Of a DNA stretch of 64,000 bases, positions 1 to 25,528 are shown one piece after another (position 1 is the stretch's first letter; each line of letters starts with the position of its first letter). This DNA is from Xanthostigma xanthostigma (Eukaryota > Arthropoda > Insecta > Raphidioptera > Raphidiidae), in assembly GCA_963575645.1 (NCBI GenBank), contig OY754475.1, positions 5,084,001 to 5,148,000 on the forward strand, given 5' to 3'. A model generated the notes under the pieces. That model saw nothing but the letters and a program-made list of their open reading frames with translations, had not been told where the DNA came from and made no database searches. The translations under genes and the position numbers were made by a program.

Positions 1-3000
1 CTTTTAGTTTCGGAGATATGGGCTATTATTTATATTTATTTGAGAAAAAGTAAAAAGCGCCGTAACTTTTAAACGACTAATGATACAGATGTGGGAGTAG
101 TCGGAATCGATTCAGCGCGGCTTTTTACATAAGAATAACCTCAGTTGAAAGTCGTATGAGAACATTATGACAGTGATTTTTGTGTTTTTTTAAAATCGGA
201 AAAAGTAAGAAGGGGGTACCCTTCTTACAAAATTGAAAAATTTTTGAAAAATAGATTCGTTTGATATTATGCATACTTATAGAAAAAGTCATTCTGAATC
301 GATTCCGACCACCCGCAACCTTGTATCTCTTTTGGTTTCGGAGATATAGCCATTTTAAAGTGTTTAATTTTTTTTACACTTTAAACCGTCATAGCGTCTA
401 AACTAACAGAGATACGAATGTGCGCTTGGTTCCATTCGATTCAGCGCACTTTTTTCTATAAGACACGTTACTATTAAGCATATCTAAAAAAATTATATAT
501 TTTGCCAAATATCGCAAATCTTTTCATGTTTTCATATCAGTTTTGCAAATCTGCAACTTTTTAAGACACTAAGCGACTTTTAGACCGTTTTATACTAACC
601 GAACCCATAGAAAATTTCAAGCTGAATCGATTCCGACTATCCGCAACCCAGTATAACTTTTAGTTTCGGAGATATGGGCCATTATTTATATTTATTTGAG
701 AGAAACTTAAAAGCACCGTAACTCTCAAACGACTAAAGATACAGATGTGGGAGTAGTCGGAATCGATTCAGCGCGGCTTTTTACATAAGAATAACCTCAG
801 TTGAAAGTCGTATGAGAACATTATGACAGTGATTTTTGTGTTTTTTTAAAATCGGAAAAAGTAAGAAGGGGGTACCCTTCTTACAAAATTGAAAAATTTT
901 TGAAAAATAGATTCGTTTGATATTATGCATACTTATAGAAAAAGTCATTCTGAATCGATTCCGACCACCCGCAACCTTGTATCTCTTTTGGTTTCGGAGA
1001 TATAGCCATTTTAAAGTGTTTAATTTTTTTTACACTTTAAACCGTCATAGCGTCTAAACTAACAGAGATACGAATGTGCGCTTGGTCCCATTCGATTCAG
1101 CGCACTTTTTTCTATAAGACACGTTACTATTAAGCATATCTAAAAAAATTATATATTTTGCCAAATATCGCAAATCTTTTCATGTTTTCATATCCGTTTT
1201 GCAAATTGCAACTTTTTAAGACACTAAGCGACTTTTAGACCGTTAGATACTAACCGAACCTATAGAAAATTTCAAGCTGAATCGATTCCGACTATCCGCA
1301 ACCCAGTATAACTTTTAGTTTCGGAGATATGGGCCATTATTTATATTTATTTGAGAAAAAGTAAAAAGTGCCGTAACTGTCAAACGACTAATGATACAGA
1401 TGTGGGAGTAGTCGGAATCGATTCAGCGCGGCTTTTTACATAAGAATAACCTCAGTTGAAAGTCGTATGAGAACATTATGACAGTGATTTTTGTGTTTTT
1501 TTAAAATCGGAAAAAGTAAGAAGGGGGTACCCTTCTTACAAAATTGAAAAATTTTTGAAAAATAGATTCGTTTGATATTATGCATACTTATAGAAAAAGT
1601 CATTCTGAATCGATTCCGACCACCCGCAACCTTGTATCTCTTTTCGTTTCGGAGATATAGCCATTTTAAAGTGTTTAAATTTTTTTACACTTTAAACCGT
1701 CATAGCGTCTAAACTAACAGAGATACGAATGTGCGCTTGGTCCCATTCGATTCAGCGCACTTTTTTCTATAAGACACGTTACTATTAAGCATATCTAAAA
1801 AAATTATATATTTTGCCAAATATCGCAAATCTTTTCATGTTTTCATATCAGTTTTGCAAATCTGCAACTTTTTAAGACACTAAGCGACTTTTAGACCGTT
1901 TTATACTAACCGAACCTATAGAAAATTTCAAGCTGAATCGATTCCGACTATCCGCAACCCAGTATAACTTTTAGTTTCGGAGATATGGGCCATTATTTAT
2001 ATTTATTTGAGAAAAAGTAAAAAGCGCCGTAACTTTTAAACGACTAATGATACAGATGTGGGAGTAGTCGGAATCGATTCAGCGCGGCTTTTTACATAAG
2101 AATAACCTCAGTTGAAAGTCGTATGAGAACATTATGACAGTGATTTTTGTGTTTTTTTAAAATCGGAAAAAGTAAGAAGGGGGTACCCTTCTTACAAAAT
2201 TGAAAAATTTTTGAAAAATAGATTCGTTTGATATTATGCATACTTATAGAAAAAGTCATTCTGAATCGATTCCGACCACCCGCAACCTTGTATCTCTTTT
2301 GGTTTCGGAGATATAGCCATTTTAAAGTGTTTAATTTTTTTTACACTTTAAACCGTCATAGCGTCTAAACTAACAGAGATACGAATGTGCGCTTGGTTCC
2401 ATTCGATTCAGCGCACTTTTTTCTATAAGACACGTTACTATTAAGCATATCTAAAAAAATTATATATTTTGCCAAATATCGCAAATCTTTTCATGTTTTC
2501 ATATCAGTTTTGCAAATCTGCAACTTTTTAAGACACTAAGCGACTTTTAGACCGTTTTATACTAACCGAACCCATAGAAAATTTCAAGCTGAATCGATTC
2601 CGACTATCCGCAACCCAGTATAACTTTTAGTTTCGGAGATATGGGCCATTATTTATATTTATTTGAGAGAAACTTAAAAGCGCCGTAACTCTCAAACGAC
2701 TAATGATACAGATGTGGGAGTAGTCGGAATCGATTCAGCGCGGCTTTTTACATAAGAATAACCTCAGTTGAAAGTCGTATGAGAACATTATGACAGTGAT
2801 TTTTGTGTTTTTTTAAAATCGGAAAAAGTAAGAAGGGGGTACCCTTCTTACAAAATTGAAAAATTTTTGAAAAATAGATTCGTTTGATATTATGCATACT
2901 TATAGAAAAAGTCATTCTGAATCGATTCCGACCACCCGCAACCTTGTATCTCTTTTCGTTTCGGAGATATAGCCATTTTAAAGTGTTTAAATTTTTTTAC

Positions 3001-5782
3001 ACTTTAAACCGTCATAGCGTCTAAACTAACAGAGATACGAATGTGCGCTTGGTCCCATTCGATTCAGCGCACTTTTTTCTATAAGACACGTTACTATTAA
3101 GCATATCTAAAAAAATTATATATTTTGCCAAATATCGCAAATCTTTTCATGTTTTCATATCAGTTTTGCAAATCTGCAACTTTTTAAGACACTAAGCGAC
3201 TTTTAGACCGTTTTATACTAACCGAACCTATAGAAAATTTCAAGCTGAATCGATTCCGACTATCCGCAACCCAGTATAACTTTTAGTTTCGGAGATATGG
3301 GCTATTATTTATATTTATTTGAGAAAAAGTAAAAAGCGCCGTAACTTTTAAACGACTAATGATACAGATGTGGGAGTAGTCGGAATCGATTCAGCGCGGC
3401 TTTTTACATAAGAATAACCTCAGTTGAAAGTCGTATGAGAACATTATGACAGTGATTTTTGTGTTTTTTTAAAATCGGAAAAAGTAAGAAGGGGGTACCC
3501 TTCTTACAAAATTGAAAAATTTTTGAAAAATAGATTCGTTTGATATTATGCATACTTATAGAAAAAGTCATTCTGAATCGATTCCGACCACCCGCAACCT
3601 TGTATCTCTTTTGGTTTCGGAGATATAGCCATTTTAAAGTGTTTAATTTTTTTTACACTTTAAACCGTCATAGCGTCTAAACTAACAGAGATACGAATGT
3701 GCGCTTGGTCCCATTCGATTCAGCGCACTTTTTTCTATAAGACACGTTACTATTAAGCATATCTAAAAAAATTATATATTTTGCCAAATATCGCAAATCT
3801 TTTCATGTTTTCATATCAGTTTTGCAAATCTGCAACTTTTTAAGACACTAAGCGACTTTTAGACCGTTTTATACTAACCGAACCTATAGAAAATTTCAAG
3901 CTGAATCGATTCCGACTATCCGCAACCCAGTATAACTTTTAGTTTCGGAGATATGGGCCATTATTTATATTTATTTGAGAAAAAGTAAAAAGCGCCGTAA
4001 CTTTTAAACGACTAATGATACAGATGTGGGAGTAGTCGGAATCGATTCAGCGCGGCTTTTTACATAAGAATAACCTCAGTTGAAAGTCGTATGAGAACAT
4101 TATGACAGTGATTTTTGTGTTTTTTTAAAATCGGAAAAAGTAAGAAGGGGGTACCCTTCTTACAAAATTGAAAAATTTTTGAAAAATAGATTCGTTTGAT
4201 ATTATGCATACTTATAGAAAAAGTCATTCTGAATCGATTCCGACCACCCGCAACCTTGTATCTCTTTTGGTTTCGGGGATATAGCCATTTTAAAGTGTTT
4301 AATTTTTTTTACACTTTAAACCGTCATAGCGTCTAAACTAACAGAGATACGAATGTGCGCTTGGTTCCATTCGATTCAGCGCACTTTTTTCTATAAGACA
4401 CGTTACTATTAAGCATATCTAAAAAAATTATATATTTTGCCAAATATCGCAAATCTTTTCATGTTTTCATATCAGTTTTGCAAATCTGCAACTTTTTAAG
4501 ACACTAAGCGACTTTTAGACCGTTTTATACTAACCGAACCCATAGAAAATTTCAAGCTGAATCGATTCCGACTATCCGCAACCCAGTATAACTTTTAGTT
4601 TCGGAGATATGGGCCATTATTTATATTTATTTGAGAGAAACTTAAAAGCACCGTAACTCTCAAACGACTAAAGATACAGATGTGGGAGTAGTCGGAATCG
4701 ATTCAGCGCGGCTTTTTACATAAGAATAACCTCAGTTGAAAGTCGTATGAGAACATTATGACAGTGATTTTTGTGTTTTTTTAAAATCGGAAAAAGTAAG
4801 AAGGGGGTACCCTTCTTACAAAATTGAAAAATTTTTGAAAAATAGATTCGTTTGATATTATGCATACTTATAGAAAAAGTCATTCTGAATCGATTCCGAC
4901 CACCCGCAACCTTGTATCTCTTTTGGTTTCGGAGATATAGCCATTTTAAAGTGTTTAATTTTTTTTACACTTTAAACCGTCATAGCGTCTAAACTAACAG
5001 AGATACGAATGTGCGCTTGGTCCCATTCGATTCAGCGCACTTTTTTCTATAAGACACGTTACTATTAAGCATATCTAAAAAAATTATATATTTTGCCAAA
5101 TATCGCAAATCTTTTCATGTTTTCATATCCGTTTTGCAAATTGCAACTTTTTAAGACACTAAGCGACTTTTAGACCGTTAGATACTAACCGAACCTATAG
5201 AAAATTTCAAGCTGAATCGATTCCGACTATCCGCAACCCAGTATAACTTTTAGTTTCGGAGATATGGGCCATTATTTATATTTATTTGAGAAAAAGTAAA
5301 AAGTGCCGTAACTCTCAAACGACTAATGATACAGATGTGGGAGTAGTCGGAATCGATTCAGCGCGGCTTTTTACATAAGAATAACCTCAGTTGAAAGTCG
5401 TATGAGAACATTATGACAGTGATTTTTGTGTTTTTTTAAAATCGGAAAAAGTAAGAAGGGGGTACCCTTCTTACAAAATTGAAAAATTTTTGAAAAATAG
5501 ATTCGTTTGATATTATGCATACTTATAGAAAAAGTCATTCTGAATCGATTCCGACCACCCGCAACCTTGTATCTCTTTTCGTTTCGGAGATATAGCCATT
5601 TTAAAGTGTTTAAATTTTTTTACACTTTAAACCGTCATAGCGTCTAAACTAACAGAGATACGAATGTGCGCTTGGTCCCATTCGATTCAGCGCACTTTTT
5701 TCTATAAGACACGTTACTATTAAGCATATCTAAAAAAATTATATATTTTGCCAAATATCGCAAATCTTTTCATGTTTTCATA
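1..5782. repeat. Satellite DNA array, left block (about 656-bp units)
   Basis: Head-to-tail tandem repeat seen directly: the phrase CTTTTAGTTTCGGAGATATG recurs at 1, 657, 1312, 1968 and so on, giving a period of 655-656 bp. Nearly nine units occupy this block and are almost identical. They differ by a recurring set of diagnostic variants (GGGCTATT or GGGCCATT, GGTTCC or GGTCCC, ATATCAG or ATATCCG, TTTTATAC or TTAGATAC). Each unit is itself a diverged dimer: CTGAATCGATTCCGAC followed by TTTCGGAGATAT occurs twice, about 328 bp apart (293 and 622). No unit holds a long open frame. The array starts before the window. The ninth unit is broken by the palindromic element at 5783. This could be pericentromeric or interstitial satellite; the sequence alone cannot decide. 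Confidence 0.97.
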
Positions 5783-6990
5783 TATTCAAAGCAATGGCAC
5801 GTCAATCCGGTGTCGGAGAGGCAACCGGATGGCGAGTGGTAATCTGGGCCTATGAGTGGTACAGAACCCCCTGGTAGCGGCCAAAGTGACCCCAAATGGA
5901 CGGGGGCGGCGATATGGGGGTGGGGCATAATCGAAAAATGTTTGAAAAGGCAACCGGATAAAAATGCGGTTGCATTGAAGGAAATACCCTAATTATATAA
6001 TAAATTTTTTTTGCCATCCGAAACACGCGGGCCGTTTTTGCACTAGCGAATAAAAAAAAAATAAAAAAAAAACTGAAAAGGCAACCGCTTCAAAATTAGT
6101 GAGCATACTTATTGACACCACCAAACGTTGGAAAAAAATTGCCATCCGATCCTGATGGGCAGTTTCGGAGAAACAACCCCTCAAAGTCGCCGAAAAACCC
6201 TTTTTTTCGATTTTTTCAACAATAAGTAAAAAAAACACACTAAAAATTGTTCAAATCGGATGGCATTCGAAATTTATACTGTCCTAAGTACAAATAACAG
6301 TGTGTATCAATGCCATCCGATTTCGATTAAATTTACCCCTATTTAGCCACCCCCAAAACTCATGAAAATAACAATTTTATGCAGCGTATGGCATTATTTT
6401 TCTTGTTATTGAGTTTTATGGGTTGGCTAAATAGGGGTAAATTTAATCAAAATCGGATGGCATTGATACACACTATTATTTGTACTTAGGACAGTATAAA
6501 TTTCGAATGCCATCCGATTTGAACAATTTTTAGTGTGTTTTTTTTACTTATTGTTGAAAAAATCGAAAAAAAGGGTTTTTCTGTGACTTTGAGGGGTTGT
6601 TTCTCCGAAACTACCCATCAGGATCGGATGGCAATTTTTTTCCAAAGTTTGGTGGTGTCAATAAGTATGCTCACTAATTTTGAAGCGGTTGCCTTTTCAG
6701 TTTTTTTTTTATTTTTTTTTTATTCGCTAGTGCAAAAACGGCCCGCGTGTTTCGGATGGCAAAAAAAATTTATTATATAATTAGGGTATTTCCTTCAATG
6801 CAACCGCATTTTTATCCGGTTGCCTTTTCAAACATTTTTCGATTTTGCCCCACCCCCATATCGCCGCCCCCGTCCATTTGGGGTCACTTTGGCCGCTACC
6901 AGGGGGTTCTGCACCACTCATAGGCCCAGATTACCACTCGCCATCCGGTTGCCTCTCCGACACCGGATTGACGTGCCATTGCTTTGAATA
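5783..6990. mobile_element. 1.2-kb palindromic (foldback) element inserted in a satellite unit
   Basis: The satellite phrase TTCATATCAGTTTTGC is split here. The element begins TATTCAAAGCAATGGCACG and ends with its reverse complement, CGTGCCATTGCTTTGAATA. The two arms (about 5783-6361 and 6411-6990) are complementary along almost their whole length, with only scattered differences, around a short central spacer near 6362-6410. A 3-bp ATA direct repeat flanks it (5780-5782 and 6991-6993), consistent with a target-site duplication. The motifs GCCATCCGA and GGTTGCC recur through both arms. No transposase frame is seen; the mirror-image 81-codon frames in the two arms are low-complexity products of the inverted repeat. 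It is probably a non-autonomous foldback DNA transposon. The superfamily is not recognised. Confidence 0.85.
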
Positions 6991-9900
6991 ATATCAGTTT
7001 TGCAAATCTGCAACTTTTTAAGACACTAAGCGACTTTTAGACCGTTTTATACTAACCGAACCTATAGAAAATTTCAAGCTGAATCGATTCCGACTATCCG
7101 CAACCCAGTATAACTTTTAGTTTCGGAGATATGGGCCATTATTTATATTTATTTGAGAAAAAGTAAAAAGCGCCGTAACTTTTAAACGACTAATGATACA
7201 GATGTGGGAGTAGTCGGAATCGATTCAGCGCGGCTTTTTACATAAGAATAACCTCAGTTGAAAGTCGTATGAGAACATTATGACAGTGATTTTTGTGTTT
7301 TTTTAAAATCGGAAAAAGTAAGAAGGGGGTACCCTTCTTACAAAATTGAAAAATTTTTGAAAAATAGATTCGTTTGATATTATGCATACTTATAGAAAAA
7401 GTCATTCTGAATCGATTCCGACCACCCGCAACCTTGTATCTCTTTTGGTTTCGGAGATATAGCCATTTTAAAGTGTTTAATTTTTTTTACACTTTAAACC
7501 GTCATAGCGTCTAAACTAACAGAGCTACGAATGTGCGCTTGGTTCCATTCGATTCAGCGCACTTTTTTCTATAAGACACGTTACTATTAAGCATATCTAA
7601 AAAAATTATATATTTTGCCAAATATCGCAAATCTTTTCATGTTTTCATATCAGTTTTGCAAATCTGCAACTTTTTAAGACACTAAGCGACTTTTAGACCG
7701 TTTTATACTAACCGAACCCATAGAAAATTTCAAGCTGAATCGATTCCGACTATCCGCAACCCAGTATAACTTTTAGTTTCGGAGATATGGGCCATTATTT
7801 ATATTTATTTGAGAAAAAGTAAAAAGTGCCGTAACTCTCAAACGACTAATGATACAGATGTGGGAGTAGTCGGAATCGATTCAGCGCGGCTTTTTACATA
7901 AGAATAACCTCAGTTGAAAGTCGTATGAGAACATTATGACAGTGATTTTTGTGTTTTTTTAAAATCGGAAAAAGTAAGAAGGGGGTACCCTTCTTACAAA
8001 ATTGAAAAATTTTTGAAAAATAGATTCGTTTGATATTATGCATACTTATAGAAAAAGTCATTCTGAATCGATTCCGACCACCCGCAACCTTGTATCTCTT
8101 TTCGTTTCGGAGATATAGCCATTTTAAAGTGTTTAAATTTTTTTACACTTTAAACCGTCATAGCGTCTAAACTAACAGAGATACGAATGTGCGCTTGGTC
8201 CCATTCGATTCAGCGCACTTTTTTCTATAAGACACGTTACTATTAAGCATATCTAAAAAAATTATATATTTTGCCAAATATCGCAAATCTTTTCATGTTT
8301 TCATATCAGTTTTGCAAATCTGCAACTTTTTAAGACACTAAGCGACTTTTAGACCGTTTTATACTAACCGAACCTATAGAAAATTTCAAGCTGAATCGAT
8401 TCCGACTATCCGCAACCCAGTATAACTTTTAGTTTCGGAGATATGGGCTATTATTTATATTTATTTGAGAAAAAGTAAAAAGCGCCGTAACTTTTAAACG
8501 ACTAATGATACAGATGTGGGAGTAGTCGGAATCGATTCAGCGCGGCTTTTTACATAAGAATAACCTCAGTTGAAAGTCGTATGAGAACATTATGACAGTG
8601 ATTTTTGTGTTTTTTTAAAATCGGAAAAAGTAAGAAGGGGGTACCCTTCTTACAAAATTGAAAAATTTTTGAAATATAGATTCGTTTGATATTATGCATA
8701 CTTATAGAAAAAGTCATTCTGAATCGATTCCGACCACCCGCAACCTTGTATCTCTTTTGGTTTCGGGGATATAGCCATTTTAAAGTGTTTAATTTTTTTT
8801 ACACTTTAAACCGTCATAGCGTCTAAACTAACAGAGATACGAATGTGCGCTTGGTTCCATTCGATTCAGCGCACTTTTTTCTATAAGACACGTTACTATT
8901 AAGCATATCTAAAAAATTATATATTTTGCCAAATATCGCAAATCTTTTCATGTTTTCATATCAGTTTTGCAAATCTGCAACTTTTTAAGACACTAAGCGA
9001 CTTTTAGACCGTTTTATACTAACCGAACCCATAGAAAATTTCAAGCTGAATCGATTCCGACTATCCGCAACCCAGTATAACTTTTAGTTTCGGAGATATG
9101 GGCCATTATTTATATTTATTTGAGAGAAACTTAAAAGCGCCGTAACTCTCAAACGACTAATGATACAGATGTGGGAGTAGTCGGAATCGATTCAGCGCGG
9201 CTTTTTACATAAGAATAACCTCAGTTGAAAGTCGTATGAGAACATTATGACAGTGATTTTTGTGTTTTTTTAAAATCGGAAAAAGTAAGAAGGGGGTACC
9301 CTTCTTACAAAATTGAAAAATTTTTGAAAAATAGATTCGTTTGATATTATGCATACTTATAGAAAAAGTCATTCTGAATCGATTCCGACCACCCGCAACC
9401 TTGTATCTCTTTTCGTTTCGGAGATATAGCCATTTTAAAGTGTTTAAATTTTTTTACACTTTAAACCGTCATAGCGTCTAAACTAACAGAGATACGAATG
9501 TGCGCTTGGTCCCATTCGATTCAGCGCACTTTTTTCTATAAGACACGTTACTATTAAGCATATCTAAAAAAATTATATATTTTGCCAAATATCGCAAATC
9601 TTTTCATGTTTTCATATCAGTTTTGCAAATCTGCAACTTTTTAAGACACTAAGCGACTTTTAGACCGTTTTATACTAACCGAACCTATAGAAAATTTCAA
9701 GCTGAATCGATTCCGACTATCCGCAACCCAGTATAACTTTTAGTTTCGGAGATATGGGCTATTATTTATATTTATTTGAGAAAAAGTAAAAAGCGCCGTA
9801 ACTTTTAAACGACTAATGATACAGATGTGGGAGTAGTCGGAATCGATTCAGCGCGGCTTTTTACATAAGAATAACCTCAGTTGAAAGTCGTATGAGAACA

Positions 9901-12900
9901 TTATGACAGTGATTTTTGTGTTTTTTTAAAATCGGAAAAAGTAAGAAGGGGGTACCCTTCTTACAAAATTGAAAAATTTTTGAAAAATAGATTCGTTTGA
10001 TATTATGCATACTTATAGAAAAAGTCATTCTGAATCGATTCCGACCACCCGCAACCTTGTATCTCTTTTGGTTTCGGAGATATAGCCATTTTAAAGTGTT
10101 TAATTTTTTTTACACTTTAAACCGTCATAGCGTCTAAACTAACAGAGATACGAATGTGCGCTTGGTCCCATTCGATTCAGCGCACTTTTTTCTATAAGAC
10201 ACGTTACTATTAAGCATATCTAAAAAAATTATATATTTTGCCAAATATCGCAAATCTTTTCATGTTTTCATATCCGTTTTGCAAATCTGCAACTTTTTAA
10301 GACACTAAGCGACTTTTAGACCGTTTTATACTAACCGAACCTATAGAAAATTTCAAGCTGAATCGATTCCGACTATCCGCAACCCAGTATAACTTTTAGT
10401 TTCGGAGATATGGGCCATTATTTATATTTATTTGAGAAAAAGTAAAAAGCGCCGTAACTTTTAAACGACTAATGATACAGATGTGGGAGTAGTCGGAATC
10501 GATTCAGCGCGGCTTTTTACATAAGAATAACCTCAGTTGAAAGTCGTATGAGAACATTATGACAGTGATTTTTGTGTTTTTTTAAAATCGGAAAAAGTAA
10601 GAAGGGGGTACCCTTCTTACAAAATTGAAAAATTTTTGAAAAATAGATTCGTTTGATATTATGCATACTTATAGAAAAAGTCATTCTGAATCGATTCCGA
10701 CCACCCGCAACCTTGTATCTCTTTTGGTTTCGGGGATATAGCCATTTTAAAGTGTTTAATTTTTTTTACACTTTAAACCGTCATAGCGTCTAAACTAACA
10801 GAGATACGAATGTGCGCTTGGTTCCATTCGATTCAGCGCACTTTTTTCTATAAGACACGTTACTATTAAGCATATCTAAAAAATTATATATTTTGCCAAA
10901 TATCGCAAATCTTTTCATGTTTTCATATCAGTTTTGCAAATCTGCAACTTTTTAAGACACTAAGCGACTTTTAGACCGTTTTATACTAACCGAACCCATA
11001 GAAAATTTCAAGCTGAATCGATTCCGACTATCCGCAACCCAGTATAACTTTTAGTTTCGGAGATATGGGCCATTATTTATATTTATTTGAGAGAAACTTA
11101 AAAGCACCGTAACTCTCAAACGACTAAAGATACAGATGTGGGAGTAGTCGGAATCGATTCAGCGCGGCTTTTTACATAAGAATAACCTCAGTTGAAAGTC
11201 GTATGAGAACATTATGACAGTGATTTTTGTGTTTTTTTAAAATCGGAAAAAGTAAGAAGGGGGTACCCTTCTTACAAAATTGAAAAATTTTTGAAAAATA
11301 GATTCGTTTGATATTATGCATACTTATAGAAAAAGTCATTCTGAATCGATTCCGACCACCCGCAACCTTGTATCTCTTTTGGTTTCGGAGATATAGCCAT
11401 TTTAAAGTGTTTAATTTTTTTTACACTTTAAACCGTCATAGCGTCTAAACTAACAGAGATACGAATGTGCGCTTGGTCCCATTCGATTCAGCGCACTTTT
11501 TTCTATAAGACACGTTACTATTAAGCATATCTAAAAAAATTATATATTTTGCCAAATATCGCAAATCTTTTCATGTTTTCATATCCGTTTTGCAAATTGC
11601 AACTTTTTAAGACACTAAGCGACTTTTAGACCGTTAGATACTAACCGAACCTATAGAAAATTTCAAGCTGAATCGATTCCGACTATCCGCAACCCAGTAT
11701 AACTTTTAGTTTCGGAGATATGGGCCATTATTTATATTTATTTGAGAAAAAGTAAAAAGTGCCGTAACTCTCAAACGACTAATGATACAGATGTGGGAGT
11801 AGTCGGAATCGATTCAGCGCGGCTTTTTACATAAGAATAACCTCAGTTGAAAGTCGTATGAGAACATTATGACAGTGATTTTTGTGTTTTTTTAAAATCG
11901 GAAAAAGTAAGAAGGGGGTACCCTTCTTACAAAATTGAAAAATTTTTGAAAAATAGATTCGTTTGATATTATGCATACTTATAGAAAAAGTCATTCTGAA
12001 TCGATTCCGACCACCCGCAACCTTGTATCTCTTTTCGTTTCGGAGATATAGCCATTTTAAAGTGTTTAAATTTTTTTACACTTTAAACCGTCATAGCGTC
12101 TAAACTAACAGAGATACGAATGTGCGCTTGGTCCCATTCGATTCAGCGCACTTTTTTCTATAAGACACGTTACTATTAAGCATATCTAAAAAAATTATAT
12201 ATTTTGCCAAATATCGCAAATCTTTTCATGTTTTCATATCAGTTTTGCAAATCTGCAACTTTTTAAGACACTAAGCGACTTTTAGACCGTTTTATACTAA
12301 CCGAACCTATAGAAAATTTCAAGCTGAATCGATTCCGACTATCCGCAACCCAGTATAACTTTTAGTTTCGGAGATATGGGCCATTATTTATATTTATTTG
12401 AGAAAAAGTAAAAAGCGCCGTAACTTTTAAACGACTAATGATACAGATGTGGGAGTAGTCGGAATCGATTCAGCGCGGCTTTTTACATAAGAATAACCTC
12501 AGTTGAAAGTCGTATGAGAACATTATGACAGTGATTTTTGTGTTTTTTTAAAATCGGAAAAAGTAAGAAGGGGGTACCCTTCTTACAAAATTGAAAAATT
12601 TTTGAAAAATAGATTCGTTTGATATTATGCATACTTATAGAAAAAGTCATTCTGAATCGATTCCGACCACCCGCAACCTTGTATCTCTTTTGGTTTCGGA
12701 GATATAGCCATTTTAAAGTGTTTAATTTTTTTTACACTTTAAACCGTCATAGCGTCTAAACTAACAGAGATACGAATGTGCGCTTGGTCCCATTCGATTC
12801 AGCGCACTTTTTTCTATAAGACACGTTACTATTAAGCATATCTAAAAAAATTATATATTTTGCCAAATATCGCAAATCTTTTCATGTTTTCATATCCGTT

Positions 12901-15900
12901 TTGCAAATCTGCAACTTTTTAAGACACTAAGCGACTTTTAGACCGTTTTATACTAACCGAACCTATAGAAAATTTCAAGCTGAATCGATTCCGACTATAC
13001 GCAACCCAGTATAACTTTTAGTTTCGGAGATATAGGCCATTATTTATATTTATTTGAGAAAAAGTAAAAAGCGCCGTAACTTTTAAACGACTAATGATAC
13101 AGATGTGGGAGTAGTCGGAATCGATTCAGCGCGGCTTTTTACATAAGAATAACCTCAGTTGAAAGTCGTATGAGAACATTATGACAGTGATTTTTGTGTT
13201 TTTTTTAAATCTGAAAAAGTAAGAAGGGGGTACCCTTCTTACAAAATTGAAAAATTTTTGAAAAATAGATTCGTTTGATATTATGCATACTTATAGAAAA
13301 AGTCATTCTGAATCGATTCCGACCACCCGCAACCTTGTATCTCTTTTGGTTTCGGAGATATAGCCATTTTAAAGTGTTTAATTTTTTTTACACTTTAAAC
13401 CGTCATAGCGTCTAAACTAACAGAGATACGAATGTGCGCTTGGTCCCATTCGATTCAGCGCACTTTTTTCTATAAGACACGTTACTATTAAGCATATCTA
13501 AAAAAATTATATATTTTGCCAAATATCGCAAATCTTTTCATGTTTTCATATCCGTTTTGCAAATTGCAACTTTTTAAGACACTAAGCGACTTTTAGACCG
13601 TTAGATACTAACCGAACCTATAGAAAATTTCAAGCTGAATCGATTCCGACTATCCGCAACCCAGTATAACTTTTAGTTTCGGAGATATGGGCCATTATTT
13701 ATATTTATTTGAGAAAAAGTAAAAAGTGCCGTAACTCTCAAACGACTAATGATACAGATGTGGGAGTAGTCGGAATCGATTCAGCGCGGCTTTTTACATA
13801 AGAATAACCTCAGTTGAAAGTCGTATGAGAACATTATGACAGTGATTTTTGTGTTTTTTTAAAATCGGAAAAAGTAAGAAGGGGGTACCCTTCTTACAAA
13901 ATTGAAAAATTTTTGAAAAATAGATTCGTTTGATATTATGCATACTTATAGAAAAAGTCATTCTGAATCGATTCCGACCACCCGCAACCTTGTATCTCTT
14001 TTCGTTTCGGAGATATAGCCATTTTAAAGTGTTTAAATTTTTTTACACTTTAAACCGTCATAGCGTCTAAACTAACAGAGATACGAATGTGCGCTTGGTC
14101 CCATTCGATTCAGCGCACTTTTTTCTATAAGACACGTTACTATTAAGCATATCTAAAAAAATTATATATTTTGCCAAATATCGCAAATCTTTTCATGTTT
14201 TCATATCAGTTTTGCAAATCTGCAACTTTTTAAGACACTAAGCGACTTTTAGACCGTTTTATACTAACCGAACCTATAGAAAATTTCAAGCTGAATCGAT
14301 TCCGACTATCCGCAACCCAGTATAACTTTTAGTTTCGGAGATATGGGCCATTATTTATATTTATTTGAGAAAAAGTAAAAAGCGCCGTAACTTTTAAACG
14401 ACTAATGATACAGATGTGGGAGTAGTCGGAATCGATTCAGCGCGGCTTTTTACATAAGAATAACCTCAGTTGAAAGTCGTATGAGAACATTATGACAGTG
14501 ATTTTTGTGTTTTTTTAAAATCGGAAAAAGTAAGAAGGGGGTACCCTTCTTACAAAATTGAAAAATTTTTGAAAAATAGATTCGTTTGATATTATGCATA
14601 CTTATAGAAAAAGTCATTCTGAATCGATTCCGACCACCCGCAACCTTGTATCTCTTTTGGTTTCGGAGATATAGCCATTTTAAAGTGTTTAATTTTTTTT
14701 ACACTTTAAACCGTCATAGCGTCTAAACTAACAGAGATACGAATGTGCGCTTGGTTCCATTCGATTCAGCGCACTTTTTTCTATAAGACACGTTACTATT
14801 AAGCATATCTAAAAAAATTATATATTTTGCCAAATATCGCAAATCTTTTCATGTTTTCATATCAGTTTTGCAAATCTGCAACTTTTTAAGACACTAAGCG
14901 ACTTTTAGACCGTTTTATACTAACCGAACCCATAGAAAATTTCAAGCTGAATCGATTCCGACTATCCGCAACCCAGTATAACTTTTAGTTTCGGAGATAT
15001 GGGCCATTATTTATATTTATTTGAGAAAAAGTAAAAAGTGCCGTAACTCTCAAACGACTAATGATACAGATGTGGGAGTAGTCGGAATCGATTCAGCGCG
15101 GCTTTTTACATAAGAATAACCTCAGTTGAAAGTCGTATGAGAACATTATGACAGTGATTTTTGTGTTTTTTTAAAATCGGAAAAAGTAAGAAGGGGGTAC
15201 CCTTCTTACAAAATTGAAAAATTTTTGAAAAATAGATTCGTTTGATATTATGCATACTTATAGAAAAAGTCATTCTGAATCGATTCCGACCACCCGCAAC
15301 CTTGTATCTCTTTTCGTTTCGGAGATATAGCCATTTTAAAGTGTTTAAATTTTTTTACACTTTAAACCGTCATAGCGTCTAAACTAACAGAGATACGAAT
15401 GTGCGCTTGGTCCCATTCGATTCAGCGCACTTTTTTCTATAAGACACGTTACTATTAAGCATATCTAAAAAAATTATATATTTTGCCAAATATCGCAAAT
15501 CTTTTCATGTTTTCATATCAGTTTTGCAAATCTGCAACTTTTTAAGACACTAAGCGACTTTTAGACCGTTTTATACTAACCGAACCTATAGAAAATTTCA
15601 AGCTGAATCGATTCCGACTATCCGCAACCCAGTATAACTTTTAGTTTCGGAGATATGGGCCATTATTTATATTTATTTGAGAAAAAGTAAAAAGCGCCGT
15701 AACTTTTAAACGACTAATGATACAGATGTGGGAGTAGTCGGAATCGATTCAGCGCGGCTTTTTACATAAGAATAACCTCAGTTGAAAGTCGTATGAGAAC
15801 ATTATGACAGTGATTTTTGTGTTTTTTTAAAATCGGAAAAAGTAAGAAGGGGGTACCCTTCTTACAAAATTGAAAAATTTTTGAAAAATAGATTCGTTTG

Positions 15901-18900
15901 ATATTATGCATACTTATAGAAAAAGTCATTCTGAATCGATTCCGACCACCCGCAACCTTGTATCTCTTTTGGTTTCGGGGATATAGCCATTTTAAAGTGT
16001 TTAATTTTTTTTACACTTTAAACCGTCATAGCGTCTAAACTAACAGAGATACGAATGTGCGCTTGGTTCCATTCGATTCAGCGCACTTTTTTCTATAAGA
16101 CACGTTACTATTAAGCATATCTAAAAAATTATATATTTTGCCAAATATCGCAAATCTTTTCATGTTTTCATATCAGTTTTGCAAATCTGCAACTTTTTAA
16201 GACACTAAGCGACTTTTAGACCGTTTTATACTAACCGAACCCATAGAAAATTTCAAGCTGAATCGATTCCGACTATCCGCAACCCAGTATAACTTTTAGT
16301 TTCGGAGATATGGGCCATTATTTATATTTATTTGAGAGAAACTTAAAAGCACCGTAACTCTCAAACGACTAAAGATACAGATGTGGGAGTAGTCGGAATC
16401 GATTCAGCGCGGCTTTTTACATAAGAATAACCTCAGTTGAAAGTCGTATGAGAACATTATGACAGTGATTTTTGTGTTTTTTTAAAATCGGAAAAAGTAA
16501 GAAGGGGGTACCCTTCTTACAAAATTGAAAAATTTTTGAAAAATAGATTCGTTTGATATTATGCATACTTATAGAAAAAGTCATTCTGAATCGATTCCGA
16601 CCACCCGCAACCTTGTATCTCTTTTGGTTTCGGAGATATAGCCATTTTAAAGTGTTTAATTTTTTTTACACTTTAAACCGTCATAGCGTCTAAACTAACA
16701 GAGATACGAATGTGCGCTTGGTTCCATTCGATTCAGCGCACTTTTTTCTATAAGACACGTTACTATTAAGCATATCTAAAAAAATTATATATTTTGCCAA
16801 ATATCGCAAATCTTTTCATGTTTTCATATCAGTTTTGCAAATCTGCAACTTTTTAAGACACTAAGCGACTTTTAGACCGTTTTATACTAACCGAACCCAT
16901 AGAAAATTTCAAGCTGAATCGATTCCGACTATCCGCAACCCAGTATAACTTTTAGTTTCGGAGATATGGGCCATTATTTATATTTATTTGAGAGAAACTT
17001 AAAAGCGCCGTAACTCTCAAACGACTAATGATACAGATGTGGGAGTAGTCGGAATCGATTCAGCGCGGCTTTTTACATAAGAATAACCTCAGTTGAAAGT
17101 CGTATGAGAACATTATGACAGTGATTTTTGTGTTTTTTTAAAATCGGAAAAAGTAAGAAGGGGGTACCCTTCTTACAAAATTGAAAAATTTTTGAAAAAT
17201 AGATTCGTTTGATATTATGCATACTTATAGAAAAAGTCATTCTGAATCGATTCCGACCACCCGCAACCTTGTATCTCTTTTCGTTTCGGAGATATAGCCA
17301 TTTTAAAGTGTTTAAATTTTTTTACACTTTAAACCGTCATAGCGTCTAAACTAACAGAGATACGAATGTGCGCTTGGTCCCATTCGATTCAGCGCACTTT
17401 TTTCTATAAGACACGTTACTATTAAGCATATCTAAAAAAATTATATATTTTGCCAAATATCGCAAATCTTTTCATGTTTTCATATCAGTTTTGCAAATCT
17501 GCAACTTTTTAAGACACTAAGCGACTTTTAGACCGTTTTATACTAACCGAACCTATAGAAAATTTCAAGCTGAATCGATTCCGACTATCCGCAACCCAGT
17601 ATAACTTTTAGTTTCGGAGATATGGGCTATTATTTATATTTATTTGAGAAAAAGTAAAAAGCGCCGTAACTTTTAAACGACTAATGATACAGATGTGGGA
17701 GTAGTCGGAATCGATTCAGCGCGGCTTTTTACATAAGAATAACCTCAGTTGAAAGTCGTATGAGAACATTATGACAGTGATTTTTGTGTTTTTTTAAAAT
17801 CGGAAAAAGTAAGAAGGGGGTACCCTTCTTACAAAATTGAAAAATTTTTGAAAAATAGATTCGTTTGATATTATGCATACTTATAGAAAAAGTCATTCTG
17901 AATCGATTCCGACCACCCGCAACCTTGTATCTCTTTTGGTTTCGGAGATATAGCCATTTTAAAGTGTTTAATTTTTTTTACACTTTAAACCGTCATAGCG
18001 TCTAAACTAACAGAGATACGAATGTGCGCTTGGTCCCATTCGATTCAGCGCACTTTTTTCTATAAGACACGTTACTATTAAGCATATCTAAAAAAATTAT
18101 ATATTTTGCCAAATATCGCAAATCTTTTCATGTTTTCATATCCGTTTTGCAAATCTGCAACTTTTTAAGACACTAAGCGACTTTTAGACCGTTTTATACT
18201 AACCGAACCTATAGAAAATTTCAAGCTGAATCGATTCCGACTATCCGCAACCCAGTATAACTTTTAGTTTCGGAGATATGGGCCATTATTTATATTTATT
18301 TGAGAAAAAGTAAAAAGCGCCGTAACTTTTAAACGACTAATGATACAGATGTGGGAGTAGTCGGAATCGATTCAGCGCGGCTTTTTACATAAGAATAACC
18401 TCAGTTGAAAGTCGTATGAGAACATTATGACAGTGATTTTTGTGTTTTTTTAAAATCGGAAAAAGTAAGAAGGGGGTACCCTTCTTACAAAATTGAAAAA
18501 TTTTTGAAAAATAGATTCGTTTGATATTATGCATACTTATAGAAAAAGTCATTCTGAATCGATTCCGACCACCCGCAACCTTGTATCTCTTTTGGTTTCG
18601 GGGATATAGCCATTTTAAAGTGTTTAATTTTTTTTACACTTTAAACCGTCATAGCGTCTAAACTAACAGAGATACGAATGTGCGCTTGGTTCCATTCGAT
18701 TCAGCGCACTTTTTTCTATAAGACACGTTACTATTAAGCATATCTAAAAAATTATATATTTTGCCAAATATCGCAAATCTTTTCATGTTTTCATATCAGT
18801 TTTGCAAATCTGCAACTTTTTAAGACACTAAGCGACTTTTAGACCGTTTTATACTAACCGAACCCATAGAAAATTTCAAGCTGAATCGATTCCGACTATC

Positions 18901-21900
18901 CGCAACCCAGTATAACTTTTAGTTTCGGAGATATGGGTCATTATTTATATTTATTTGAGAGAAACTTAAAAGCACCGTAACTCTCAAACGACTAAAGATA
19001 CAGATGTGGGAGTAGTCGGAATCGATTCAGCGCGGCTTTTTACATAAGAATAACCTCAGTTGAAAGTCGTATGAGAACATTATGACAGTGATTTTTGTGT
19101 TTTTTTAAAATCGGAAAAAGTAAGAAGGGGGTACCCTTCTTACAAAATTGAAAAATTTTTGAAAAATAGATTCGTTTGATATTATGCATACTTATAGAAA
19201 AAGTCATTCTGAATCGATTCCGACCACCCGCAACCTTGTATCTCTTTTGGTTTCGGAGATATAGCCATTTTAAAGTGTTTAATTTTTTTTACACTTTAAA
19301 CCGTCATAGCGTCTAAACTAACAGAGATACGAATGTGCGCTTGGTCCCATTCGATTCAGCGCACTTTTTTCTATAAGACACGTTACTATTAAGCATATCT
19401 AAAAAAATTATATATTTTGCCAAATATCGCAAATCTTTTCATGTTTTCATATCCGTTTTGCAAATTGCAACTTTTTAAGACACTAAGCGACTTTTAGACC
19501 GTTAGATACTAACCGAACCTATAGAAAATTTCAAGCTGAATCGATTCCGACTATCCGCAACCCAGTATAACTTTTAGTTTCGGAGATATGGGCCATTATT
19601 TATATTTATTTGAGAAAAAGTAAAAAGTGCCGTAACTCTCAAACGACTAATGATACAGATGTGGGAGTAGTCGGAATCGATTCAGCGCGGCTTTTTACAT
19701 AAGAATAACCTCAGTTGAAAGTCGTATGAGAACATTATGACAGTGATTTTTGTGTTTTTTTAAAATCGGAAAAAGTAAGAAGGGGGTACCCTTCTTACAA
19801 AATTGAAAAATTTTTGAAAAATAGATTCGTTTGATATTATGCATACTTATAGAAAAAGTCATTCTGAATCGATTCCGACCACCCGCAACCTTGTATCTCT
19901 TTTCGTTTCGGAGATATAGCCATTTTAAAGTGTTTAAATTTTTTTACACTTTAAACCGTCATAGCGTCTAAACTAACAGAGATACGAATGTGCGCTTGGT
20001 CCCATTCGATTCAGCGCACTTTTTTCTATAAGACACGTTACTATTAAGCATATCTAAAAAAATTATATATTTTGCCAAATATCGCAAATCTTTTCATGTT
20101 TTCATATCAGTTTTGCAAATCTGCAACTTTTTAAGACACTAAGCGACTTTTAGACCGTTTTATACTAACCGAACCTATAGAAAATTTCAAGCTGAATCGA
20201 TTCCGACTATCCGCAACCCAGTATAACTTTTAGTTTCGGAGATATGGGCCATTATTTATATTTATTTGAGAAAAAGTAAAAAGCGCCGTAACTTTTAAAC
20301 GACTAATGATACAGATGTGGGAGTAGTCGGAATCGATTCAGCGCGGCTTTTTACATAAGAATAACCTCAGTTGAAAGTCGTATGAGAACATTATGACAGT
20401 GATTTTTGTGTTTTTTTAAAATCGGAAAAAGTAAGAAGGGGGTACCCTTCTTACAAAATTGAAAAATTTTTGAAAAATAGATTCGTTTGATATTATGCAT
20501 ACTTATAGAAAAAGTCATTCTGAATCGATTCCGACCACCCGCAACCTTGTATCTCTTTTGGTTTCGGAGATATAGCCATTTTAAAGTGTTTAATTTTTTT
20601 TACACTTTAAACCGTCATAGCGTCTAAACTAACAGAGATACGAATGTGCGCTTGGTCCCATTCGATTCAGCGCACTTTTTTCTATAAGACACGTTACTAT
20701 TAAGCATATCTAAAAAAATTATATATTTTGCCAAATATCGCAAATCTTTTCATGTTTTCATATCCGTTTTGCAAATCTGCAACTTTTTAAGACACTAAGC
20801 GACTTTTAGACCGTTTTATACTAACCGAACCTATAGAAAATTTCAAGCTGAATCGATTCCGACTATACGCAACCCAGTATAACTTTTAGTTTCGGAGATA
20901 TAGGCCATTATTTATATTTATTTGAGAAAAAGTAAAAAGCGCCGTAACTTTTAAACGACTAATGATACAGATGTGGGAGTAGTCGGAATCGATTCAGCGC
21001 GGCTTTTTACATAAGAATAACCTCAGTTGAAAGTCGTATGAGAACATTATGACAGTGATTTTTGTGTTTTTTTTAAATCTGAAAAAGTAAGAAGGGGGTA
21101 CCCTTCTTACAAAATTGAAAAATTTTTGAAAAATAGATTCGTTTGATATTATGCATACTTATAGAAAAAGTCATTCTGAATCGATTCCGACCACCCGCAA
21201 CCTTGTATCTCTTTTGGTTTCGGAGATATAGCCATTTTAAAGTGTTTAATTTTTTTTACACTTTAAACCGTCATAGCGTCTAAACTAACAGAGATACGAA
21301 TGTGCGCTTGGTTCCATTCGATTCAGCGCACTTTTTTCTATAAGACACGTTACTATTAAGCATATCTAAAAAAATTATATATTTTGCCAAATATCGCAAA
21401 TCTTTTCATGTTTTCATATCCGTTTTGCAAATCTGCAACTTTTTAAGACACTAAGCGACTTTTAGACCGTTTTATACTAACCGAACCTATAGAAAATTTC
21501 AAGCTGAATCGATTCCGACTATCCGCAACCCAGTATAACTTTTAGTTTCGGAGATATGGGCCATTATTTATATTTATTTGAGAAAAAGTAAAAAGCGCCG
21601 TAACTTTTAAACGACTAATGATACAGATGTGGGAGTAGTCGGAATCGATTCAGCGCGGCTTTTTACATAAGAATAACCTCAGTTGAAAGTCGTATGAGAA
21701 CATTATGACAGTGATTTTTGTGTTTTTTTAAAATCGGAAAAAGTAAGAAGGGGGTACCCTTCTTACAAAATTGAAAAATTTTTGAAAAATAGATTCGTTT
21801 GATATTATGCATACTTATAGAAAAAGTCATTCTGAATCGATTCCGACCACCCGCAACCTTGTATCTCTTTTGGTTTCGGAGATATAGCCATTTTAAAGTG

Positions 21901-22164
21901 TTTAAATTTTTTTACACTTTAAACCGTCATAGCGTCTAAACTAACAGAGATACGAATGTGCGCTTGGTCCCATTCGATTCAGCGCACTTTTTTCTATAAG
22001 ACATGTTACTATTAAGCATAACTGAGATATTTGTATATTTTTTTAAATAGTAGAAATCTGTTCATGTTTTTATGCGTTCAGCAAATCAGACAGTATTAAA
22101 CGATTTTTGGCCTGTTTTATATTAACCGAACATATAGAAAAAGTCATTATGAATCGATTCCGAC
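6991..22164. repeat. Satellite DNA array, right block, with decayed edge
   Basis: Continuation of the same satellite for about 23 more units. Rare variants such as TTTCGGGGAT, GACTATACGC, GATATAGGCC and TTTAAATCTG mark individual units and reappear in the same order 7868 bp apart, which shows higher-order organisation. The array stays regular until about 22015. The last partial unit (22016-22164) diverges strongly yet still aligns with consensus, for example the phrase AACCGAACATATAGAAAAAG and the final GAATCGATTCCGAC. Immediately after it the sequence becomes the first visible exon of an M20-peptidase-like gene. Edge decay of this kind is expected of array ends that escape homogenisation. 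Confidence 0.96.
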
Positions 22165-25100
22165 ACCATGTTCTAACTGTCGACAGATTGAGGTACATCG
22201 ATGAGGTTGCAGCGGCCGTCAAAATACCGTCGATTGCCGGCATTTTGTCTTACCGCAATGACGTCATCGACATGATCAAATTTACGGAGACGTGGCTTCG
22301 GAAGTTGGGCGTGAAGTACGAATGCTTCAACATCGGCTGGCACTGTTTGGAGGGCAAGAAGTACCGATTGCCGCCGGCTATTTTGGGAACACTGGGAAAC
22401 GACAAGCATAAACATACGGTGAGAGCGCTTTGCGAGGATTGGGTTGTTTTTTTTAATTTCATAAACAAAAAGAAACAAAACTTGACGTAACAATTCAATT
22501 CAATTAAATCATGCAAATAAAATAGAGACTAAAACAGCTGGCGACTTGCACGTAGTCTATACGAATTATAAAATCTCAGCGTTACCAAATTTCATCGTTT
22601 TTCGCGGCAGGTTTGCGTCTACCTTCATTTGGATGTTAAGCTTCCGAAAGAAGACGAGTGGAACACGAGTCCTTTCGAACTGAGCATCAAAGAAAAACGA
22701 ATGATCGGCGCCGGCGTGTACAAGAATAAAGGTGCGCTCATGGCCTGGTTTCATGCTATAGAGGCGTTCCAGAAATCCAACGTCGAGATTCCGATCAATG
22801 TCAAGTTCATTATCGAATCGATGCATTACAAGGCGAGCGAAGGGCTCGAGGAGTTTTTGAGGTAACGAAAAAACTGTATTTACGTTAAAGTATCTCGAAT
22901 CGCTGTAGCAGCGCTGCTGTTTATAGATAGATAGACCATAAATAAGAAGTTTCAGCATAAGAAGTTTAACTTCAGTATCCAATCAAGTTTTCAATTTGTA
23001 TTAAAAACGCGTTCGTTAAAATTTAAACTCGAAAAACGGGCGTGTTTTGTTTTTGTAGAACGCAGCGAGTGCATTTTTTGAAAAACATCGATTTCGTGAT
23101 TGTCTGCGACTCGAACCATCTCGGCAAAGTGCCGTGTTTGATCTACGGTAGCACGGGTCTGTGCCATTTCGTTGTGACGGCCGAGCAGAACGAGAGTTCG
23201 AAAAGTGACGCGAAAAAAGTCATGGAGGAGATTTTCAAACGCGTCTCGGACGAAGAAGAACGCATTTTGATTAAAGACATCGACGAGTCCGTTGCCCAGA
23301 TTACGCCCGACGAAGAAATCGTCTACGAGAACATAGATTTCAATGTTAAAGATCTAACGTAAGATACATTTCAAAATAATACTTCGGAACCCAATGGAAT
23401 GGTGAGACCTCTGGTGAGAAATGCGCCGAACTGTCCTAAGGGGGGTTCTTGACTGGTAAACTATGGAGGCATAAGGTAAACATTGATTTAGAAAAGGTTA
23501 GCCTCCATCATGCTTTTCTAAATCAATGTTTACCTGTCAAAAAAACCCCCTTAGGACAGTTCGGCGCATTTCTCACCAGAGGTCTCACTATTCCTTTGGA
23601 TTCCGAATACGAAACCTTTTCTGGTGCCGACGAGAGTCGATTTAGACTCGTATATATACGACTTGAATACACGACTTGCTTTTTTTTCAAGATTGGTTGT
23701 CATTTGTTCGACTTACTATTGTCGGAATACGCGTTTTAAAACATTTAAATTTCAGGTTGCCGCCCTACAGAAGAAAATGGGACAAAGTCAAGTTGTTGAT
23801 GTACTTTTGGCGATTGCCTTCGATTCTCATCCAGGACATGCAAGAATGCAAATGCGAGGATCGAAAAGAAAAGTTTCCGATAGCCGTGAAGCAGGGATTC
23901 ATCTTGAAAATCGTTCCCAACCAGGTACGAGATCATCCAGTCCTTGTAGCAGGGACTCTTTCCAGACTGTTTAAAACCTGATACTAAAATTAATTTGTGA
24001 ATTTGATATTTGACGGTTTTGTACATTCGTTTCTTCTAGAGCGCGATATGGAATATCGCGCAATAAAAGTAGAGTTTGTAAGTTTGGGTGTAGGAGGTAA
24101 TCTCTGAAACTACTCATCCGATTTCAAAATTGTTTCACCTATATTTAGAATGGACCTTCAGGATGGCATAGGTTATATATTATCGCGTTAAAATGCTTTT
24201 CGTGGAGACCAATTTTGTCTAAAATTTCGGGCGAAACCGGACCGGACCGCTAGTCTTTGATAAAACCATTGCCGTGACAAATCGCGCATTTTATTATTTT
24301 ACTCAAAAAATAATGCACCGTCCAATTTCATCTTTCGGCTCCGTCTTTGACACTGAGTTTTATGCGATTTGTTTTTTCGTTCCCGCCAGATCCCTGAACG
24401 CGTTTTTCCGCTGGTCACGCGACACATCCAGGAAGCTGCCCAAAGTATCGGCTCCGATTGCACGGTCCGGTGCGATATGTTGACTGCGGTCAGACCTTGG
24501 GTCGAAGACATACGCAGCGCTCATTATGAAGCGGCGAGGAGAGCAACTATACAGGTATGCGAAATAATTATTGAGGCTCGAACTTGCTGACAGCGCGTTT
24601 CTTCGATTTTAATGATTTGGTGTTCCATCTAGAACGACAGTGTCGGCTTAAAACAATAAATAAAAAGCCTCTTTCTCGGCACTTTGGCACTTGTCAAAAT
24701 TTTTTGAGGCTATGTGTCGCTGCCTTCGTATTAGAACATGAATGTTTACCATATACTTTTATTCTATACTGAGCATAGGGATAAAATCGCAATCGAACTA
24801 TTAGGATGCAAACATACACTTCTGTCTTTTTTTACGCCGTAAGCACTGGCAAAAAAACACGGGGGACCCGGCTTCAGAAATTTCTAATTTGCCCCCTCCT
24901 GGGCCAAAAGCTGGGTACGCCCATGTGAACGTCATAGAAAAGACAAAGATTTTGAAACAGAGATACTTTATTCAGATTGAATGCAAGTACATCAACCAAT
25001 CCTATCATCGGACAAATCAAGGAATTACATCGAAGTAAGAGACGCAGATATATTTTCGATACGCTTTGTTGCGTTCACTCACCACACATTGAGTAGATAA

Positions 25101-25528
25101 GCAATAATAATAATAATATAGACGCTCAATAACTGAGGTCATCAGCGTGTGTGTTAGAAAACCTGCCAGCCAAAATATTCAAACCGACTGGCGTACGAGC
25201 TTGGATATCTGGGGCGAGAACTCACTGTTTTTTTTTTCTTTTTTTGTAAACAGCGGCTGTTTTCAAATAACAGGACCGGTTTTTTTTCCAGATTTATAAA
25301 GAGAATCCAAACATGGTCCGCGAGGACAGACCTCTCCATCACGTACTGCTGCTCGACCGCGTCATCGGCTGCAATATCCTGGTGCTGCCGCTCGGGGATT
25401 ACGAGACTCGCGGCGGCGAGGCGAACGAATCGTTCTCGTTGCGTCATTACTACGAAGGCATCAAGGTCATCGCGGCCTACATGCTTCAGGTGTCGTACAT
25501 TGAAAAAAACGACGAGAGGAACCAGTAG
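22149..25528 (+). CDS. M20-family metallopeptidase homologue (CNDP2-like), probable pseudoenzyme, six exons
   Basis: The coding exons joined by eye are 22149-22418, 22611-22861, 23059-23358, 23756-23924, 24390-24554 and 25292-25528. All introns are GT-AG, every junction keeps frame, and the product is 463 aa, close to the roughly 475 aa usual for cytosolic non-specific dipeptidase. Recognisable family blocks in order are LPPAILGTLGNDKHK, HLDVKLPKEDEW, EGLEEFL, VCDSNHLGKVPCLIYG, ILKIVPNQ, RPWVEDIRSAHYEAARRA and NILVLPLG...YYEGIKVIAAYM. Known M20 enzymes bind two Zn ions. Here the GxGxxDxKG bridging Asp is Lys (GAGVYKNKG), the catalytic Glu-Glu pair is His-Tyr (ESMHYKASEG), the C-terminal His ligand is Gly, and the LHSG lid motif is missing. 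The HLDV and CDS-type Asp residues remain. An active peptidase is therefore unlikely, but conserved frame and splice sites argue against a dead gene. Exons are GC-richer than introns. The start codon is uncertain: the ATG at 22149 lies in satellite-derived DNA, and an upstream exon beyond the array is possible. Confidence 0.82.
23383..23607. mobile_element. Palindromic MITE, copy 1, in intron 3 of the M20-like gene
   Basis: Inverted repeat of about 225 bp. The left end TTCGGAACCCAATGGAAT mirrors the right end, which closes with TTCCGAA, and the arms share the phrase GTGAGACCTCTGGTGAGAAA and its complement. The centre holds a second inverted stretch around GATTTAGAAAAG. A second copy lies at 32968-33213. 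The flanking TAC/TAC could be a target-site duplication. No coding capacity. Confidence 0.8.
24029..24252 (+). mobile_element. Helitron-like short repeat in intron 4 of the M20-like gene
   Basis: Shares the family phrases GAGTTTGTAAGTTTGGGTG, TACTCATCCGATTTCAAAA, TTATATATTATCGCGTTAAA and TTTTCGTGGAGACCAATTTT with the copies at 31720, 32077, 32664, 50433 and 54477. It ends GGACCGCTAGT. The left end is degenerate, so its boundary is approximate. The family's TC start and CTAG end resemble non-autonomous Helitrons that are common in Lepidoptera. Confidence 0.65.
24748..25104 (-). repeat. Dispersed repeat, inverted copy of 33385-33715, in intron 5 of the M20-like gene
   Basis: The reverse complement of this stretch matches 33385-33715 over about 330 bp. 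Shared phrases include GAACGCAACAAAGCGTATCG, TCCGATGATAGGATTGGTTG, TCAATCTGAATAAAGTATCT and AGTTCGATTGCGATTTTAT. This copy has an extra stretch (GGCGTACCCAGCTTTTGGCC on the minus strand) that is absent from the other. The class is not recognised; no frame or terminal repeats are evident. Confidence 0.75.

What the first reader, a model, noticed from the sequence alone, without database searches (positions are those of the whole stretch)
22149..25528. Intact six-exon M20 dipeptidase homologue with its active site erased
The fold-defining blocks, frame, splice sites and length of CNDP2 are kept, yet the bridging Asp is Lys, the catalytic Glu-Glu is His-Tyr, the C-terminal His ligand is Gly, and the LHSG lid motif is lost. 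That combination suggests a selected pseudoenzyme (binding, scaffold or regulatory role), not a decaying copy.
Basis: partly seen in the sequence, partly recalled or inferred. Interest (0 to 1): 0.7.

Follow-up and report, generated by a model that had tools for sequence, protein, structure and literature searches.

The report
Dead dipeptidase paralogue, satellite-filled first intron
This appears to be an intact animal gene descended from the dipeptidase CNDP2 whose protein has lost its metal-binding catalytic site, and whose real first exon lies outside the window behind a 35-kilobase intron that is mostly repeated DNA.

Summary
The active-site observation is right. The window encodes a CNDP2 (M20) homologue in which Asp132 is Lys, Glu166-Glu167 are His-Tyr, His445 is Gly and the LHSG lid loop is deleted; His99, Asp101 and Asp195 remain. 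The gene model needs correcting. The ATG at 22149 lies inside a 656-bp satellite array that reaches 22164. The better model has seven exons: exon 1 is at C12:5071448-5071596, 12.4 kb before the window, joined by a 34,590-bp, mostly satellite intron to an acceptor at 22187. No exact intron position is shared with the genome's CNDP2 paralogue on C4, so the claim that CNDP2's splice sites are kept fails. Five hundred codons without a stop and intact GT-AG sites argue against a decaying copy. However, the active site is not lost selectively: 85 of 159 residues invariant in five active-type relatives are changed, and Pfam M20_dimer is undetected. Best reading: a fast-evolving, constrained pseudopeptidase, probably structural or protein-binding. 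No orthologue, expression or fold-model test was possible.

The parts
1..22164 (.). 656-bp satellite array, window part, interrupted at 5784-6990; lies inside intron 1. The whole intron is C12:5071597-5106186 (34,590 bp).
   Evidence: BLAST of a unit against the window and 60 kb upstream; 49 full units, median pairwise identity 0.991 over 732 equal-length pairs
5784..6990 (.). 1.2-kb non-satellite stretch inside the array (looks like a long inverted repeat, by eye)
   Evidence: other satellite copies read CTG here
22165..22186 (+). 22-nt non-satellite end of intron 1 with acceptor ...CGACAG
22187..22418 (+). exon 2 (exon 1 is outside the window at C12:5071448-5071596, + strand)
   Evidence: phase-2 junction; gapless match LKKLLQHVDTYRLRYIDEV to paralogue LKKLFAHIDQHKKEYIKNL
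22611..22861 (+). exon 3; holds retained H133 and D135 (H99, D101), K165 (D132), H199-Y200 (E166-E167)
23059..23358 (+). exon 4; holds retained D228 (D195); the LHSG lid loop (H228) is deleted here
23383..23607 (.). foldback element in intron 4 (68-nt arms, 93% complementary)
23756..23924 (+). exon 5; T330 to E349, R343 to K362
24390..24554 (+). exon 6; H380 to T399
25292..25528 (+). exon 7 with TAG stop; G464 at the H445 ligand position

Best explanation
The locus is a fast-evolving paralogue of CNDP2, with no second copy found in this genome, that still encodes a 500-aa protein of M20 type but lacks the residues for the two-metal centre, so it is a pseudopeptidase. Shown: homology, site losses, open frame, splice sites, an exon 1 candidate beyond the satellite. 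Inferred: that it is transcribed across the 34.6-kb intron, folds, and acts non-catalytically. Of non-catalytic roles I think a structural or protein-binding role most likely, perhaps in the male germ line as with Drosophila's inactive sperm leucyl aminopeptidases (about 0.2 for that tissue). A regulatory partner of CNDP2 is less likely, because the lid region is the most diverged part.
For: Mouse and human CNDP2 are the best PDB hits (E 1.5e-73, 1.1e-72). Loss of metal ligands D132, E167, H445, base E166 and lid H228; roles of H99, D132, E166, E167, D195, H445 from PMC6271292 passages. No stop in 500 codons; at 0.357 identity over 459 aligned codons, 200 neutral simulations gave mean 16.2, minimum 5 stops. 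GC3 0.64-0.65 against intron GC 0.38. Hydrophobic in 120 of 136 columns that are hydrophobic in all five relatives, background 0.44. Tree: end branch 2.58 against 0.15 for the C4 paralogue, grouped with it at 75/91, not a starred branch. A CNDP2 paralogue with the listed active-site residues remains in the genome. Exon 1: best of all 12-residue windows in 82.3 kb, six frames, 24.8 against next 18.4, with an in-phase GT.
Against: No expression data, no orthologue. Site losses are not enriched over general divergence, so the data fit general relaxation as well as a change of function. The paralogue's own GC3 is 0.38, so high GC3 is not this family's coding signature here. Recent loss of expression would leave the frame intact. 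Exon 1 rests on a 12-residue similarity plus donor phase, and its GC3 is 0.51.
Confidence: 0.75

Rival explanations
1. Recently silenced pseudogene: the protein was constrained for most of its history, but expansion of the satellite in intron 1 has stopped productive splicing and the frame has not yet decayed.
For: Units are nearly identical (median 0.991), so the array spread or was homogenised recently; weak polypyrimidine tract before the acceptor at 22187 (by eye); 85 of 159 invariant residues changed.
Against: All splice sites and 500 codons are intact; exon 1 is still in frame with a donor. Drosophila kl-3 and kl-5 carry megabases of intronic satellite that are transcribed (PMC6508621, abstract and passages).
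Confidence: 0.12
2. Regulatory partner of active CNDP2: it heterodimerises and withholds the lid histidine from the partner's active site, so acts as a dominant brake on dipeptidase.
For: CNDP2 is active only as a homodimer (PMC6421639 passage), and docking shows chain B residues such as His228 at the ligand bound in chain A (PMC12655758 passages; some contacts were not kept in their simulations). Here that loop is deleted while catalytic-domain homology remains.
Against: The lid region (human 208-384; boundaries recalled) is the least conserved: 0.27 identity to the paralogue against 0.42 and 0.36 for the two catalytic-domain parts; M20_dimer undetected.
Confidence: 0.12
3. Residual or altered metalloenzyme: H99 and D195 (metal 2 ligands) with the new His at 166 hold one metal and catalyse something else.
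For: H99, D101 and D195 kept; E166 replaced by His.
Against: Bridging D132 is Lys and both other metal-1 ligands are gone; none of the seven pocket residues tested is identical (R343 is Lys, a mild change).
Confidence: 0.05

Closest known systems
CNDP2 / CN2, cytosolic non-specific dipeptidase (MEROPS M20)
   Same: Alignment over most of the length, 32-36% identity to mouse, human and C4 CNDP2; several catalytic-domain motifs
   Different: Lacks D132, E166, E167, H445, H228, T330 and R343; lid diverged; N-terminus 33 residues longer than the C4 paralogue's (counted at LKKL); different introns from C4; 34.6-kb mostly satellite intron
Drosophila sperm leucyl aminopeptidases S-LAP (M17)
   Same: Aminopeptidase duplicates whose largest group is inferred to have lost catalytic activity and which are components of sperm paracrystalline material (PMC3078892, PMC6388916 passages)
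   Different: Another peptidase family, and multicopy; no expression data exist for the window gene
Satellite-filled introns of Drosophila kl-3 and kl-5 (PMC6508621 passages)
   Same: Coding exons separated by introns of satellite DNA
   Different: Those are megabases of short repeats on the Y; here 34.6 kb with a 656-bp unit, chromosome type unknown

Membership tests
Peptidase family M20 (PF01546) by homology | significant match to the family profile | tested here: met
   52.1-52.4 bits against cut-off 24.6
CNDP2 orthologue (active dipeptidase) | metal ligands H99, D132, E167, D195, H445 and catalytic E166 | tested here: not met
   of these six only H99 and D195 are kept; D101 also kept
CNDP2 orthologue (active dipeptidase) | M20_dimer lid domain with LHSG | tested here: not met
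   no PF07687 hit at E up to 10, loop deleted; the C4 paralogue has both
CNDP2 orthologue (active dipeptidase) | best match in this genome to mammalian CNDP2 | tested here: not met
   the C4 gene is 65-66% identical to mouse and human CNDP2, the window gene 32-33%
Pseudoenzyme (pseudopeptidase) | catalytic residues lost | tested here: met
Pseudoenzyme (pseudopeptidase) | coding sequence under constraint | tested here: inconclusive
   0 stops against 5-28 in neutral simulations, but no orthologues and dS saturated
Pseudoenzyme (pseudopeptidase) | expressed, folded, without activity | not testable with these tools
Sperm structural pseudopeptidase (S-LAP-like) | testis expression and presence in sperm | not testable with these tools
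   none held

The most novel reading that the evidence does not exclude
An M20 dipeptidase duplicate has independently followed the path of Drosophila's S-LAPs, becoming a catalytically dead structural protein of sperm, with its transcript tied to a satellite-filled intron that is read through only in the germ line.
Probability: 0.18. Interest if true: 0.65.

Novelty: new variant of a known kind. Interest (0 to 1): 0.4.

Why it matters
Pseudopeptidases are common (FlyBase has 184 Drosophila genes annotated as not peptidases; PMC12869072 passage). A word search of one review of inactive metallopeptidase homologues found M20 only inside reference DOIs (PMC11266112, find only), and the search for cytosolic non-specific dipeptidase with pseudoenzyme returned no paper in the held library; this is not proof that none exists. 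If constrained and expressed, this is a CNDP2-derived pseudopeptidase with a short list of residues to test. It also shows how a satellite boundary can pose as a start codon.

Tried and rejected
Rejected: translation start at 22149 (satellite). Rejected: an exon structure shared with the C4 CNDP2 (no exact intron position in common). Looked for: further copies in the genome; a protein search at E up to 10 gave 10 matches, namely six window exon pieces, three C4 CNDP2 pieces and one at E 1.2; only the best 9 candidates were scored. Not resolved: how widespread the satellite is. The DNA search was answered without scoring because of too many letters, and the pattern search did not complete. Not resolved: organism. 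The five contig-end stretches read show no TTAGG or TCAGG doublets, and I did not pursue the identity. dN/dS against the paralogue was computed (NG86 dN 0.68, dS undefined; ML dN 0.75, dS 16.7; YN00 failed) and set aside as saturated. Fisher tests for selective loss were negative. Paper searches with no hit; of the 13 papers and the 15 listed of 54 I looked only into PMC6421639, PMC11266112 and PMC12869072.

Full report
WHAT IS THERE. The region 22149-25528 encodes a CNDP2-like protein in six exons with GT-AG introns and no stop. phmmer against PDB sequences gives mouse CNDP2 (2zof) at E 1.5e-73 and human CNDP2 (4ruh) at 1.1e-72; 8 distinct sequences match at E up to 0.001. Pfam gives PF01546 at 52.4 bits and nothing else at E up to 1.

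GENE MODEL CORRECTED. The array continues upstream to C12:5071606. Just before it, at C12:5071448-5071596, an exon encodes MVYPHSYRTEHSETQTTSSMYGGYYATKVETKIKIQPELKKLLQHVDTY(R) and ends in a GT donor in phase with the acceptor at 22187. The junction aligns without a gap to the N-terminus of the genome's CNDP2 paralogue. Scored against five CNDP-family N-termini, this piece is the best of every 12-residue window in 82,300 bases and six frames (24.8, next 18.4). The resulting gene has 7 exons, 500 residues and a 34,590-bp first intron. That intron holds 49 full units, median pairwise identity 0.991 over 732 equal-length pairs, minimum 0.919. It is not pure satellite: in its window part a unit covers 20,957 of 22,186 bases, the rest being a 1.2-kb stretch at 5784-6990 and the last 22 bases.

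PARALOGUE. The genome (623 Mb, 28 contigs) has four PF01546 matches at three loci: the window, C4 (1198006 and 1200345), and C5:30193023; six candidates were scored. The C4 gene is a five-exon CNDP2 of 476 aa, 65% identical to mouse and 66% to human CNDP2, with the listed active-site residues. The window protein is 0.355 identical to it over 459 columns and groups with it at 75/91 support, not starred, with an end branch of 2.58 against 0.15. With long branches and seven rows, this placement is provisional. None of the 6 window introns coincides exactly with any of the 4 C4 introns.

ACTIVE SITE. In human numbering: H99, D101 and D195 are kept; D132 is K, E166 H, E167 Y, H445 G; H228 is deleted. 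Pocket residues Y197, T330, R343, H380, G416 and S417 are N, E, K, T, R and P (pocket list from PMC12655758 passages). The literature names H99, D132, E167, D195 and H445 as metal ligands, D132 as the bridge and E166 as the catalytic Glu (PMC6271292 passages). Without bridging Asp, two ligands and the base, CNDP2-type hydrolysis is not expected (inference).

IS THE LOSS SELECTIVE? No. Of 159 columns invariant in five relatives (C4 paralogue, mouse and human CNDP2, CN1, DUG1), 74 are kept. Of the 14 listed residues 10 are invariant: 3 kept, 7 lost; elsewhere 71 kept, 78 lost; Fisher p = 0.34. The lid region (human 208-384, boundaries recalled) has 0.27 identity to the paralogue, the two catalytic-domain parts 0.42 and 0.36. 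M20_dimer is found in the paralogue (50.7 bits) but not here at E up to 10.

IS IT DECAYING? Probably not for most of its history. 200 neutral simulations from the paralogue's codons to the observed identity (0.357 over 459 codons) gave 5 to 28 stops, mean 16.2; observed 0. Replacements are milder than neutral ones (mean BLOSUM62 -0.27; simulated mean -0.78, maximum -0.55). GC3 is 0.64 against intron GC 0.38, but the paralogue's GC3 is 0.38, so composition differs between the two genes. 120 of 136 hydrophobic columns stay hydrophobic. Pairwise dN is 0.68-0.75 with saturated dS, so no usable ratio. A recent loss of function cannot be excluded.

HOW IT MAY WORK. The site lacks the ligands for two metals; one metal at H99 and D195 with the new His is possible but unlikely given Lys at the bridge. 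The poorly conserved lid argues against a conserved heterodimer with CNDP2. A structural or binding protein is the most economical reading. The analogy with S-LAPs, aminopeptidase duplicates found in sperm, the largest group of them inferred inactive (PMC3078892, PMC6388916 passages), and with satellite introns of spermatogenic genes (PMC6508621 passages), suggests the male germ line; this is inference by analogy, without expression data.

VERDICT. The substitutions are real and the pseudoenzyme reading is likely, but the gene model and the selective-erasure argument need correction. That the organism is an insect is my guess from neighbouring proteins and gene style (recalled, not tested).

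Noticed in passing
L023, L024, L025, L026, L027 (end stretches of contigs C12, C4 both ends, C5, C1): Contig ends are arrays of short units built on runs of A or T and of G or C that differ between chromosomes, with no TTAGG or TCAGG doublets; possibly unusual telomere-like repeats.
   Followed up: partly
window 5784-6990: Interruption of the satellite array by about 1.2 kb of other sequence that looks by eye like one long inverted repeat, a foldback element inserted in a unit.
   Followed up: partly
window 23383-23607: Foldback (MITE-like) element in an intron: 68-nt arms 93% complementary, with a nested 23-nt perfect inverted repeat.
   Followed up: partly
window 46574-47857 (-), 51028-51771 (-), 56098-56718 (-): Long repetitive ORFs: the first rich in HEHGFEHK-type repeats, the other two in HVKTIHITKTIPVPVPKPYPV-type repeats. 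Only sub-threshold Pfam matches (GRP for the second and third, Keratin_2_head for the third, none for the first); look like a cluster of secreted structural proteins.
   Followed up: partly
C12:5045576-5049861 (+) and 5054356-5054736 (-), upstream of the window: Neighbours: ORFs with Acyltransferase and GPAT_C domains (GNPAT-like, recalled) and uroporphyrinogen-III synthase HemD.
   Followed up: no
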